Of a DNA stretch of 64,000 nt, positions 46,594 to 53,393 are shown piece after piece. Positions within the stretch are counted from its first letter, which is position 1, and the number at the start of each line of letters is the position of its first letter. Source of the DNA: Paenibacillus herberti (GTDB lineage: Bacteria; Bacillota; Bacilli; Paenibacillales; Paenibacillaceae). The notes beneath the pieces are model-generated. The model had not been told where the DNA came from, did not search any database, and saw only the letters and a program-made list of their open reading frames with translations. Position numbers and translations under genes: made by a program. Location: NCBI RefSeq assembly GCF_002233675.1, contig NZ_NMUQ01000003.1:445649-509648 (forward strand), read 5' to 3'.

Positions 46594-47469
46594 TTACGGC
46601 TGCTCAACTAGGTTTTTCCGTCGATAAGCGGCTGGAGTTGAAGCTGTTAAGCCCTTAAAAATTCGGTGGAAATGCGGAATGCTCATAAACCCGCATTTCT
46701 CCGCAATGTTGGCGATGCTCTCGTCGGATTCCAGCAGCAAACCTTTGGCTTGAATAATTCGTTTGGCATTCACATAATCGGTAACATTCATCCCTGTAAA
46801 CTGCTTGAATACTCGTGAAAAATGAGGCGGAGAAACAGAAGATTTCTCGGCAAATTCGACCAAGCTATACGCTAGTCCAGGCTGCGCATCTATTTCAAGC
46901 AGGGCCCTCTTAATCCAAGAGGGTCCTATTCGTTTATCCCCTGCTCTAGGGGTAAAATGACGAGCTAGATGGCGGTTCAAATGTAATAACAGTCTTCCGA
47001 GCTCAAGACGAATTGACGCCCGATACCCTTCAAGCTGATCGGTTTGCTCCCTATGAATCCATTCCATAGAGCTTTCAACGCTTGAACGGACTGTTTCCGT
47101 CAGATCGAATTTATAATGTTTTTGGCCACGAGCGATATCGAAGCATTGCAACAGCGAGTAGGAATGATCGTAGATTTCTCCAGCGGCAAAAGCAGGCGTA
47201 AAAAAAATCGCCGTGGAAATAATCGGATTGAGCTCATCCGGCAGGGAGCGATGTACGGTATTGCCTGGAATAATGAACAGGTCCCCGCTTTTTTTCTCAT
47301 ACAGCGTGTTATCTATAAAAAAGGTACCTGTTCCTTGATGGATATAAACGAGCTCAAAGTGCTCGTGGAGATGATCGGGAAGCTCATCCTCAGGATGTTT
47401 GACATGCTGATGGATGATATGAAAGGGAAATAACGGATCTCCTATAAAGGGCTTGCGGAAGGGCTCCAT
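46594..47469 (-). CDS. AraC family transcriptional regulator
   Basis: This 291-residue regulator has a cupin (about 20-95; DHLHEHFELVYIHQGTGTFFIDNTLYEKKSGDLFIIPGNTVH) and a C-terminal double helix-turn-helix (about 190-280; FAEKSSVSPPHFSRVFKQFTGMNVTDYVNAKRIIQAKGLLL and NIAEKCGFMSIPHFHRIFKGLTASTPAAYRR). ATG at 47469 follows TTGGAG by about 10 nt; earlier in-frame ATGs have no site. It faces the lactonase-uxaBA operon across a region with nested inverted repeats, so it most likely senses L-galactose or an aldonate and switches that operon on. It ends 4 nt from the convergent 29-residue gene. Confidence 0.92.
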   Translation of the reverse strand: MEPFRKPFIGDPLFPFHIIHQHVKHPEDELPDHLHEHFELVYIHQGTGTFFIDNTLYEKKSGDLFIIPGNTVHRSLPDELNPIISTAIFFTPAFAAGEIYDHSYSLLQCFDIARGQKHYKFDLTETVRSSVESSMEWIHREQTDQLEGYRASIRLELGRLLLHLNRHLARHFTPRAGDKRIGPSWIKRALLEIDAQPGLAYSLVEFAEKSSVSPPHFSRVFKQFTGMNVTDYVNAKRIIQAKGLLLESDESIANIAEKCGFMSIPHFHRIFKGLTASTPAAYRRKNLVEQP

Positions 47470-47508
47470 ACGGATCATCTCCAATGAATAAGTTCGTCCC
47501 ATCATAAT

Positions 47509-47572
47509 ATCAAAATAGAGTACAAATATGAATATATAGATCATATCATTGTAAATTTTGATTATTTATAAT
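47509..47572. promoter_or_regulatory. Nested inverted repeats and -10 box before the galactonate/altronate operon
   Basis: ATCAAAAT (47509-47516) mirrors ATTTTGAT (47555-47562), and TACAA (47521-47525) mirrors TTGTA (47549-47553). A perfect TATAAT follows at 47567-47572, 25 nt before the ATG of the first operon gene. This is the expected binding region for the divergent AraC protein. Confidence 0.5.
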
Positions 47573-47597
47573 GAGATTAACAGAAGGAGGAATGGAG

Positions 47598-51413: not shown

Positions 51414-52372
51414 TGAAATACCGCAAGCTGGGAAAAACGGGCCTGGATGTTTCCACACTGAGTTTTGGCGCTTCATCGCTCGGCTCCGTTTTCCGGAACA
51501 CAGATGATGGCGAGGCCATCACGACGGTACATGCTGCCGTAGATTCAGGCATCAATCTGATTGACGTGTCCCCTTATTACGGGCTGACAAAGGCCGAGAC
51601 GGTGCTTGGCAAAGCGATTCAACAAATCCCGCGTGACAAGTTTTTGCTTTCTACAAAAGCAGGGCGTTATGGAGCGGATGAGTTCGATTTTTCGGCGAAA
51701 AGAATTACGGCAAGCGTTGAGGAAAGCTTGGCGCGCCTTCATACGGATTATATCGATGTGCTCTTCCTGCATGATATCGAATTTGTGCCGGCAAACATTA
51801 TCATCGAGGAAGCTATTCCGGCTTTGCAGCAATTGAAACAGCAAGGGAAAATCCGCTTTACCGGTATTTGCGGCCTGCCTTTGGAGCTGTTCGAATATAT
51901 GCTGCCAAAGGTCGACGTTGATGCGATTATTTCGTATTGCCATTATTCCTTGAATGACACTTCACTCTTGAATCTGCTGCCATTGCTGGAATCCAAAGAC
52001 ATTGGCCTCGTAAATGCCTCCCCTCTGTCGATGGGTCTGCTTGGTATGCGTGGAGCGCCCGACTGGCATCCAGCAAGTCCGCAACTAAAAGCGGCATGCA
52101 AAGCAGCTGCTCAGTTCTGCGAGTCGCATGGCGAAGATATTGCCAAGCTTGCGGTGCAGTTTTCCACTTCCAATGAGCTTATTCCTACTACACTCGTCAG
52201 CACGGCGAACCCGGTGAATATCGTCAAAAACGCCATGTGGGTCGATGAGCCAATCAATAAAGAGCTGCTTAAAGCAGTGCAAGAGCTGTTAGCTCCTGTA
52301 TTAAATGAAACCTGGGTCAGCGGAAGACCCCAATACAACACCAAAATTCAGTTAAACGAAGGCGGGCATTAA
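51413..52372 (+). CDS. Aldo/keto reductase, L-galactose/L-fucose dehydrogenase-like
   Basis: This is a 319-residue AKR barrel. The catalytic tetrad is seen as Asp in GINLIDVSPYYG, Tyr in the same motif, Lys in FLLSTKAGRYG and His in IDVLFLHDIEF. The opening YRKLGKTGLDVSTLSFGASSLGSVF and the ...SPYYGLTKAETVLGKAI segment are those of the aldose 1-dehydrogenase subgroup that includes plant and bacterial L-galactose dehydrogenases and D-threo-aldose dehydrogenase. In this operon it would oxidise the sugar to a lactone. Its ATG shares one base with the uxaA stop (TAATG). Confidence 0.88.
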   Translation: MKYRKLGKTGLDVSTLSFGASSLGSVFRNTDDGEAITTVHAAVDSGINLIDVSPYYGLTKAETVLGKAIQQIPRDKFLLSTKAGRYGADEFDFSAKRITASVEESLARLHTDYIDVLFLHDIEFVPANIIIEEAIPALQQLKQQGKIRFTGICGLPLELFEYMLPKVDVDAIISYCHYSLNDTSLLNLLPLLESKDIGLVNASPLSMGLLGMRGAPDWHPASPQLKAACKAAAQFCESHGEDIAKLAVQFSTSNELIPTTLVSTANPVNIVKNAMWVDEPINKELLKAVQELLAPVLNETWVSGRPQYNTKIQLNEGGH

Positions 52373-52376
52373 AGCG

Positions 52377-53393
52377 ATGAAGGGTATTGTATGCGAGGCG
52401 GTCGAGTCGTTCCAGTATCGCGATGATTTGCCGGAACCAGAAATGTTGCCGGGAGAAGCAATTGTACAAATTCGCAGAGTCGGGATCTGCGGAACCGATC
52501 TGCATGCCTTTAAAGGCAATCAGCCGTTTTTCTCTTATCCTCGTATTCTGGGCCACGAGCTGTCGGGTACGATTGTACAGGTAAACGAGGGTCAGCATGG
52601 TCTACAGGTGGGAGATCAGGTCGCTGTTATCCCGTATTTGCACTGTGGAATCTGTGTAGCTTGCCGCAATGGAAAAACGAACTGCTGCACCTCGATGAAG
52701 GTGCTTGGCGTTCATACGGACGGCGGAATGCGGGAGCGGATTGCCGTGCCGACTTCGCATCTGATTCGGACGGATGGCTTGACTCTAGATGAGTCGGCCA
52801 TGCTGGAGCCCCTGGCGATTGGCGCTCATGCTGTTCGCCGCTCCAAGCTGACGGCGGGTGAGACTGTGCTCGTAATCGGCGCAGGGCCGATTGGGCTAGG
52901 TGTAATGGCTTTTGCCAAATATGCGGGGGCCAAAGTTATTGCGATGGATGTCAACGACGAGCGCTTGGCTTTTTGCCGCTCATGGGCTGGCGTCGACGAT
53001 ATCGTTAACGCATCCAATGGAGCTGCGGAGCAGCTCCAGCGTTTGACAGATGGCGATTATCCGACGATTGTGTTTGATGCTACAGGCAATTCCAAGTCAA
53101 TGGAAACGGCATTCTCTTATGCGGCTCATGGCGGTACATTGGTCTATGTAGGCTTGGTGAAAAATGATATCTCGTTCAACGATTCCGAATTCCATAAGCG
53201 GGAAATGACTCTTATGGGCAGTCGCAATGCGACTAAGGAAGATTTCGACCGCGTGCTGGAGGCGCTTAAAGCTGGCGGCATCGATATCGGACGGTATGTC
53301 ACTCATCGCGCCAGCTTCGAGGAGATGGTTGGACAGTTCGACGTTTGGCTGAACCCTGCCTCGAAGGTCATTAAGGCGATTGTAGAGCTATAA
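52377..53393 (+). CDS. Zinc-dependent dehydrogenase, L-galactonate 5-dehydrogenase-like
   Basis: This 338-residue medium-chain dehydrogenase has catalytic zinc ligands Cys38 (GICGTDLHAF) and His-Glu in GHE, four structural cysteines (CGICVACRNGKTNCC) and the NAD loop VIGAGPIGLGVMAFAKYAGAKVIAMD. It resembles the YjjN/LgoD type, which oxidises L-galactonate to D-tagaturonate. That product is the substrate of UxaB in the same operon, and the coherence of the steps is the main support for this role over related L-idonate or sorbitol dehydrogenases. It is last in the operon; no terminator is visible before the next promoter. Confidence 0.88.
   Translation: MKGIVCEAVESFQYRDDLPEPEMLPGEAIVQIRRVGICGTDLHAFKGNQPFFSYPRILGHELSGTIVQVNEGQHGLQVGDQVAVIPYLHCGICVACRNGKTNCCTSMKVLGVHTDGGMRERIAVPTSHLIRTDGLTLDESAMLEPLAIGAHAVRRSKLTAGETVLVIGAGPIGLGVMAFAKYAGAKVIAMDVNDERLAFCRSWAGVDDIVNASNGAAEQLQRLTDGDYPTIVFDATGNSKSMETAFSYAAHGGTLVYVGLVKNDISFNDSEFHKREMTLMGSRNATKEDFDRVLEALKAGGIDIGRYVTHRASFEEMVGQFDVWLNPASKVIKAIVEL

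What the first reader, a model, noticed from the sequence alone, without database searches (positions are those of the whole stretch)
46594..53393. An operon that fits a complete L-galactose to KDG pathway
Five coupled genes encode, by family, an aldose dehydrogenase of the L-galactose type, a COG3618 lactonase, a YjjN/LgoD-like dehydrogenase, UxaB and UxaA, divergent from an AraC regulator. The steps chain without gaps: L-galactose to lactone to L-galactonate to D-tagaturonate to D-altronate to 2-keto-3-deoxygluconate. No uronate isomerase (uxaC) is present, so tagaturonate must come from the aldonate side. A galactose dehydrogenase and lactonase route joined to tagaturonate is known from Bacteroides vulgatus; here it would be in a Firmicute with an AraC switch. 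L-galactose sources would include red-algal galactans and plant rhamnogalacturonan II. No transporter or KDG kinase is adjacent.
Basis: partly seen in the sequence, partly recalled or inferred. Interest (0 to 1): 0.78.

Follow-up and report, generated by a model that had tools for sequence, protein, structure and literature searches.

The report
L-galactose catabolic operon and regulon
A soil-type Paenibacillaceae bacterium carries a compact, regulated five-gene operon that very probably burns the rare mirror-image sugar L-galactose, and the same control site sits in front of the genome's only GH95 sugar-releasing enzyme gene; the pathway is known from gut and soil bacteria of other phyla, so this is a new variant rather than a new kind.

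Summary
An AraC-type regulator gene diverges from five translationally coupled genes, in the order COG3618 lactonase, uxaB, uxaA, L-galactose-dehydrogenase-type AKR, Zn dehydrogenase. The L-galactose to KDG reading is well supported but no enzyme was assayed. The AKR is about 54% identical to a solved L-galactose dehydrogenase. The Zn enzyme falls in one 97/97 clade with E. coli LgoD. The whole genome (99.99% complete) has no uronate isomerase. In 67 UxaC-negative family genomes, full UxaA is kept in 6/6 with the AKR and 5/61 without (p=4.6e-6). New here: a conserved operator (RATATCAAAAWANNGTAYAAA, often followed by TGCAA) lies in 23 of 27 divergent intergenic regions. In this genome its only other convincing copy is about 80 nt upstream of the sole GH95 gene (alpha-L-fucosidase/alpha-L-galactosidase family), and that site is conserved in two sister species. 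GH95 genes also neighbour the cluster in 13 of 29 Bacillota loci. So the likely unit is an L-galactoside-scavenging regulon. The pathway itself is known from Bacteroides vulgatus and, closest in content, from the AraC-controlled lgu cluster of Luteolibacter. The AKR is widespread (217 of 400 family genomes). Transporter unknown; KDG kinase only a candidate.

The parts
46594..47469 (-). AraC-family regulator gene (cupin sensor plus HTH); likely start 47469, the ORF opens at 47544
   Evidence: Pfam AraC_binding and HTH_18; divergent in 6-gene and 3-gene clusters of relatives
47506..47533 (+). conserved putative operator AATATCAAAATAGAGTACAAATATGAAT in the divergent promoter region
   Evidence: motif in 23/27 homologous intergenic regions versus mean 2.2, max 6 in shuffles; exact 21-mer, only hit in the window at up to 3 mismatches
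47598..48431 (+). COG3618 amidohydrolase-type sugar lactonase (L-galactono-lactonase, inferred); ORF opens at 47571
   Evidence: Amidohydro_2; best NCBIfam L-fucono-1,5-lactonase 223 bits (cut-off 400 not met); PDB 4dlf E=5e-45
48428..49909 (+). UxaB: D-tagaturonate reductase / D-altronate dehydrogenase
   Evidence: NCBIfam tagaturonate reductase 546 bits, cut-off 359 met; 39% to E. coli UxaB
49902..51413 (+). UxaA: D-altronate dehydratase, full length with SAF domain (503 aa)
   Evidence: Pfam SAF + GD_AH_second + GD_AH_C; 52% to E. coli UxaA
51413..52372 (+). L-galactose dehydrogenase-type aldo-keto reductase
   Evidence: five best PDB hits all L-galactose dehydrogenases (306-343 bits), next hit 114 bits
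52377..53393 (+). Zn-dependent L-galactonate 5-dehydrogenase (LgoD type, inferred)
   Evidence: 42% full length to E. coli LgoD; LgoD-containing clade 97/97 excluding RspB, Tdh, IdnD, GatD, YdjJ
32787..33449 (+). KDPG aldolase, candidate downstream enzyme, not in the operon
   Evidence: TIGR01182 176 bits, cut-off 156 met

Best explanation
The operon is an inducible L-galactose catabolic unit. The AKR oxidises L-galactose to L-galactono-lactone. The COG3618 enzyme opens the lactone to L-galactonate. The LgoD-type Zn dehydrogenase oxidises C5 to D-tagaturonate. UxaB reduces this to D-altronate and UxaA dehydrates it to KDG, which unlinked enzymes (a PfkB-type KDG kinase candidate and the KDPG aldolase at 32.8 kb) split to pyruvate and glyceraldehyde-3-phosphate. 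The divergent AraC protein binds a conserved site in the promoter region and, on sensing L-galactose or an early derivative, switches on the operon and the distant, only GH95 glycosidase gene, which frees the sugar from L-galactosyl side chains. Shown by sequence: gene content, coupling, families, catalytic residues, operator conservation, the GH95 site, absence of UxaC. Inferred: all activities, the inducer, activation rather than repression, and the sugar source.
For: AKR: top five solved relatives are all L-galactose dehydrogenases, nearly 200 bits above anything else; about 54% identity to the best. The characterised LguA of this AKR kind has a kcat/Km 40-fold higher for L-galactose than for L-glucose and no activity on L-fucose or D-arabinose. 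Zn-DH: one 97/97 clade with LgoD. UxaB over its curated cut-off. No UxaC in a 99.99% complete genome, while controls ring. UxaC-negative genomes: UxaA kept 6/6 with the AKR versus 5/61 without; two of the five exceptions (G007, G307) still carry the block but have a decayed or lost AKR. Block conserved in Cohnella and Paenibacillus. Operator in 23/27 regions; second site ~80 nt upstream of the genome's only GH95 gene, conserved upstream of the same gene in two sister species. GH95 neighbours in 13/29 Bacillota loci.
Against: No activity, growth or expression data. Lactonase and AKR do not reach any curated equivalog cut-off. No transporter found, and no further site at up to 2 mismatches that could reveal one. 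The KDG kinase candidate scores below its cut-off. GH95 also contains alpha-L-fucosidases. The same operator and AraC type sit beside L-fucose-type clusters in some relatives (L209, L219), so the inducer could be shared with or closer to L-fucose. The genus sample behind the UxaC test is small (three of the six genomes are one genus).
Confidence: 0.83

Rival explanations
1. Dual L-glucose/L-galactose pathway as in Luteolibacter: the same AKR and Zn-DH also take L-glucose and L-gluconate, with an unlinked 5-keto-L-gluconate 4-epimerase feeding D-tagaturonate.
For: LguA and LguD are naturally dual. The genome has over a dozen AP_endonuc_2-type proteins, the superfamily of IolO-like epimerases.
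Against: None of six tested candidates matches a curated epimerase of this kind; no epimerase near the operon or under the operator; L-glucose is presumed absent from nature. As a side activity it would not contradict the main reading.
Confidence: 0.08
2. L-galactonate is the physiological substrate (uptake of the acid), the AKR and lactonase being accessory or for another aldose.
For: E. coli lgo works this way; relatives G007 and G307 keep araC, uxaBA and Zn-DH with the AKR decayed or lost.
Against: The AKR is intact here and the AKR-lactonase-Zn-DH core is the most conserved part across Bacillota, while uxaBA is what comes and goes; GH95 in the regulon points to a neutral sugar.
Confidence: 0.05
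3. The operon serves D-galacturonate or another hexuronate.
For: uxaA and uxaB are classical galacturonate genes.
Against: No UxaC in the genome; AKR, lactonase and Zn-DH would be purposeless.
Confidence: 0.01
4. L-fucose (or D-arabinose) catabolism through AKR and fuconolactonase.
For: Best NCBIfam hit of the lactonase is L-fucono-1,5-lactonase; D-arabinose/L-fucose AKRs also touch L-galactose; GH95 is mostly a fucosidase family; the operator type also occurs beside fucose-type clusters.
Against: A 6-deoxy acid cannot pass through UxaB/UxaA; LguA does not use L-fucose or D-arabinose; the genome has a separate cluster of short UxaA, SDR and FAH hydrolase that fits L-fucose and carries no operator.
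Confidence: 0.03

Closest known systems
lguRABCDEF cluster, Luteolibacter sp. LG18 (PMC12632266, J Bacteriol 2025)
   Same: Divergent AraC-type activator (annotated Btr), L-galactose/L-glucose AKR, D-altronate dehydratase, D-tagaturonate reductase, L-galactonate dehydrogenase; same chemistry, shown by enzymology and knock-outs
   Different: Luteolibacter has aldolase and a kinase-like gene in the cluster and no COG3618 lactonase; here a lactonase is first in the operon and aldolase/kinase are unlinked; different phylum; conserved operator and GH95 site not described there
Bacteroides vulgatus L-galactose pathway BVU_0219-0222 (Hobbs et al. 2014; paper not held, cited through PMC12632266 and own knowledge)
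   Same: AKR L-galactose dehydrogenase, cog3618 lactonase, L-galactonate dehydrogenase leading to tagaturonate
   Different: Bacteroidales Zn-DHs next to the AKR form a separate 100/100 branch outside the LgoD clade that holds the window enzyme
E. coli L-galactonate pathway (lgoT, lgoR, lgoD with uxaB, uxaA)
   Same: LgoD, UxaB and UxaA chemistry; homologues at 42, 39 and 52% identity
   Different: E. coli starts from the acid, has the LgoT transporter, no AKR or lactonase, and genes are dispersed
GH95 alpha-L-galactosidase BACOVA_03438 in the corn-xylan PUL of Bacteroides ovatus (PMC4491172)
   Same: GH95 coupled to plant side-chain L-galactose; catalytic Asn-x-Asn motif kept
   Different: The own-genome GH95 has Asp, not Thr/His, two residues before that motif; activity untested

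Membership tests
L-galactose to KDG oxidative pathway (B. vulgatus / Luteolibacter type) | AKR of the L-galactose dehydrogenase family with intact tetrad | tested here: met
L-galactose to KDG oxidative pathway (B. vulgatus / Luteolibacter type) | L-galactonate 5-dehydrogenase | tested here: met
   by phylogeny only: LgoD clade 97/97; activity not assayed
L-galactose to KDG oxidative pathway (B. vulgatus / Luteolibacter type) | Sugar lactonase (present in B. vulgatus, absent in Luteolibacter) | tested here: met
   COG3618/Amidohydro_2 with HxH, H, D residues; curated fuconolactonase cut-off not met
L-galactose to KDG oxidative pathway (B. vulgatus / Luteolibacter type) | UxaB and full-length UxaA | tested here: met
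L-galactose to KDG oxidative pathway (B. vulgatus / Luteolibacter type) | KDG kinase and KDPG aldolase in the genome | tested here: inconclusive
   aldolase met cut-off; kinase candidate L150 best fits KDG/KDGal kinase but 187 bits under cut-off 400
L-galactose to KDG oxidative pathway (B. vulgatus / Luteolibacter type) | Growth on L-galactose, enzyme activities | not testable with these tools
   needs bench work
D-galacturonate isomerase pathway | Uronate isomerase UxaC | tested here: not met
   no PF02614 hit in the genome, 7 of 14 control genomes ring
Dual L-glucose/L-galactose pathway (LG18) | 5-keto-L-gluconate 4-epimerase LguG | tested here: inconclusive
   many AP_endonuc_2 proteins, none matching a curated epimerase of this kind
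Thermotoga-type inositol pathway (IolM/IolN/IolO) | scyllo-inosose dehydrogenase IolM | tested here: not met
   IolM model 175 bits against cut-off 450
Non-phosphorylative L-fucose pathway | fuconate dehydratase plus KDF dehydrogenase/hydrolase in the unit | tested here: not met
   operon has full-length UxaA plus UxaB instead; fucose-type genes lie in a separate cluster

The most novel reading that the evidence does not exclude
The operon is the core of a previously undescribed, family-wide L-galactoside-scavenging regulon in Bacillota: one AraC protein and one conserved operator co-control the L-galactose pathway and GH95 glycosidases, including a divergent GH95 subfamily (Asp at the debated -2 position before Asn-x-Asn) that would be a new kind of alpha-L-galactosidase. 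That would make L-galactose a common, overlooked carbon source for soil Paenibacillaceae.
Probability: 0.45. Interest if true: 0.65.

Novelty: new variant of a known kind. Interest (0 to 1): 0.5.

Why it matters
It extends a pathway characterised in one Bacteroides and one Luteolibacter to Bacillota, where its key enzyme is present in about half of the sampled Paenibacillaceae. It supplies a regulatory handle (an operator sequence) that predicts which GH95 enzymes are likely alpha-L-galactosidases rather than fucosidases, an open question because the proposed Thr/His marker has failed (PMC8245568). It also gives a clean case where uxaA and uxaB exist without uxaC, a warning against annotating such genes as galacturonate catabolism.

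Tried and rejected
Galacturonate reading: rejected, no UxaC in the genome. Inositol (IolM) reading: rejected by score. L-fucose reading: rejected for this operon; a separate fucose-like cluster exists. Thr/His position as proof of galactosidase: all 18 linked classical GH95s have Thr, but XacAfc95 and Blon_2335 are Thr-bearing fucosidases, so I do not use it as proof. Sulfatase next to the own GH95 as a sign of sulfated algal galactan: not pursued, because only a fragment of it remains in sister species G298 and none is next to the gene in G296. Exact inverted repeat ATCAAAAT/ATTTTGAT in the promoter region: conserved only within the genus, so the operator is defined by the one family-wide arm. 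Sigma-70 and terminator scans were at chance level. Searching for a transporter through the operator found none. Could not obtain LguD and BVU_0222 sequences themselves; Bacteroidales neighbours of the AKR stand in for the latter. The 20 kb flanks gave no help for L035/L036-type Verrucomicrobia, whose Zn-DH is not adjacent. No structure was folded: solved relatives made it unnecessary.
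Full report
WHAT IS THERE. Six genes occupy 46594-53393: an AraC-family regulator on the minus strand and, divergent from it, COG3618 lactonase, uxaB, uxaA, AKR and Zn dehydrogenase. With starts chosen by ribosome-binding sites and homologues, the divergent gap is 128 bp and the five genes overlap or abut (-4, -8, -1, +4 nt). The genome (5.41 Mb, 99.99% complete, 17 contigs) is held as G000 and the window is G000:C12:445649-509648.

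ENZYMES. The AKR's five best solved relatives are all L-galactose dehydrogenases (306-343 bits), followed by a gap to 114 bits. UxaB passes the curated tagaturonate reductase cut-off (546 against 359) and UxaA has all three domains of altronate dehydratase with 52% identity to E. coli UxaA. The lactonase matches L-fucono-1,5-lactonase below its cut-off (223 against 400) and a solved COG3618 enzyme. In a maximum-likelihood tree of 69 Zn dehydrogenases, the window enzyme, all Bacillota, Planctomycetota and Verrucomicrobiota neighbours of the AKR, and E. coli LgoD form one 97/97 clade; RspB, Tdh, IdnD, GatD and YdjJ fall outside, as do the Bacteroidales enzymes next to their AKR, which form a separate 100/100 branch. 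E. coli rows have long branches, so the exact sister of LgoD is not certain. Catalytic residues are intact.

NO GALACTURONATE ROUTE. UxaC is absent from the whole genome while 7 of 14 control genomes ring. In 400 family genomes, 217 have the AKR, 333 have UxaC and 292 have a window-like full-length UxaA. Among the 67 without UxaC, UxaA is kept in 6 of 6 with the AKR and 5 of 61 without it (Fisher p=4.6e-6). Three of the six are one genus, so the test is weaker than the number suggests. Two of the five exceptions (G007, G307) carry the same araC-operator-uxaBA-Zn-DH block with the AKR decayed or lost.

CONSERVATION. The same block occurs in Cohnella (L063, L079, L096, L100, L101) and Paenibacillus sinensis (L084); many Paenibacillus, Saccharibacillus and Gracilibacillus have a shorter araC | lactonase-AKR-Zn-DH version. 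In some genomes uxaBA stands alone behind its own copy of the regulator and operator (L208, L210, L220, L222). The core that persists is AKR plus Zn-DH, which argues that L-galactose, not the acid, is the usual substrate.

OPERATOR AND REGULON. Of 27 intergenic regions between araC and the operon in Bacillota, 23 share RATATCAAAAWANNGTAYAAA, usually followed by TGCAA, always in the same orientation; Markov shuffles (scored on the core TATCAAA, either strand) give mean 2.2, maximum 6. In the whole genome the 21-mer with up to two mismatches has four hits: the operon (exact) and three two-mismatch sites against one control hit. One of these three lies about 80 nt upstream of the start of the genome's only GH95 gene (G000:C1, L157 7039-9525). 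With the 27-mer including TGCAA, this GH95 site is the only exact match in the genome and the operon's own site is next with two mismatches. Caution: the TGCAA part is visible in the other loci, but I wrote the 27-mer after reading the GH95 upstream sequence, so one search is the cleaner test. The site upstream of the same GH95 gene is kept in the two sister species that have the operon and lack UxaC (G298, exact; G296, one mismatch; GH95 95% and 86% identical). In G186 a classical GH95 distant from the AKR also has the operator directly upstream (L212).

GH95 CONTEXT. Classical GH95 genes neighbour the cluster in 13 of 29 Bacillota loci of the named set against 1 of 51 others, plus L130, L134 and L138; GH31, GH43, GH29 and GH127 occur with them in some. 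GH95 can be L-galactose- or L-fucose-specific; BACOVA_03438 from a corn-xylan locus releases only L-galactose (PMC4491172). All 18 linked classical GH95s have the Thr proposed to favour L-galactose, but this marker has been contradicted (PMC8245568). The own GH95 is divergent (about 25-27% to the others), with Asp-Ala-Asn-Val-Asn at that position (sequence).

DOWNSTREAM AND UPTAKE. KDPG aldolase: window 32787-33449 passes its cut-off. KDG kinase: best candidate is a PfkB protein at G000:C1:145449 (KDG/KDGal kinase model 187 bits, cut-off 400; solved KDG kinases among best hits). No transporter could be tied to the regulon.

KNOWN SYSTEMS. The Luteolibacter lgu cluster (AraC-type LguR, AKR LguA, UxaA-type LguB, UxaB-type LguC, dehydrogenase LguD, aldolase LguE) does the same chemistry, shown by enzymology and gene disruption; LguA prefers L-galactose and does not use L-fucose or D-arabinose (PMC12632266). 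B. vulgatus BVU_0219-0222 is the first described case (Hobbs et al. 2014; full text not held). Searches of the held literature for L-galactose catabolism found no report in Paenibacillus or other Bacillota; the library lacks most subscription papers, so this is weak evidence of novelty.

VERDICT. A real, ordinary-looking but well-built L-galactose operon, a new variant of a known pathway, with one new element: a conserved operator that ties it to GH95 glycosidases.

Noticed in passing
window 42531-43370 and 43363-44280: PhyH-family dioxygenase coupled to an NHL/SMP-30-like propeller gene, 2-3 kb from the operon; PhyH relatives (56-58% identity) lie directly beside the L-galactose cluster in L073 and L138.
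   Followed up: partly
window 44426-46503: A PseB/FnlA-like UDP-GlcNAc 4,6-dehydratase overlaps an extra MurG-like glycosyltransferase (417 bits to PRK12446), an odd pair just beside the operon; kept in sister genome G298.
   Followed up: no
window 53480-54028: Small coiled-coil ORF made of near-identical repeats (LEGRFDS/LESRFET) immediately downstream of the operon.
   Followed up: no
window 31438-33449: KDPG aldolase gene overlaps the end of an adenine glycosylase (MutY-like) gene, an unexpected coupling.
   Followed up: no
L126 7742-12272 (G000:C1): Separate cluster of short UxaA-type dehydratase, Gfo/Idh/MocA, SDR and FAH hydrolase beside a LacI-type regulator, fitting a non-phosphorylative L-fucose route.
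   Followed up: partly
L209 and L219: The same AraC type and operator stand beside fucose-type clusters (short UxaA, SDRs, FAH hydrolase or lactonase), so this regulator type may have switched between L-galactose and L-fucose.
   Followed up: partly
L157 9662-11437 (G000:C1): Sulfatase gene just upstream of the GH95 gene; only a fragment remains in sister G298 and none is adjacent in G296.
   Followed up: partly
L206 10668-11897 (G007): Decayed AKR remnant read into the Zn-DH frame while the rest of the block stays intact, a pathway apparently losing its first step.
   Followed up: partly
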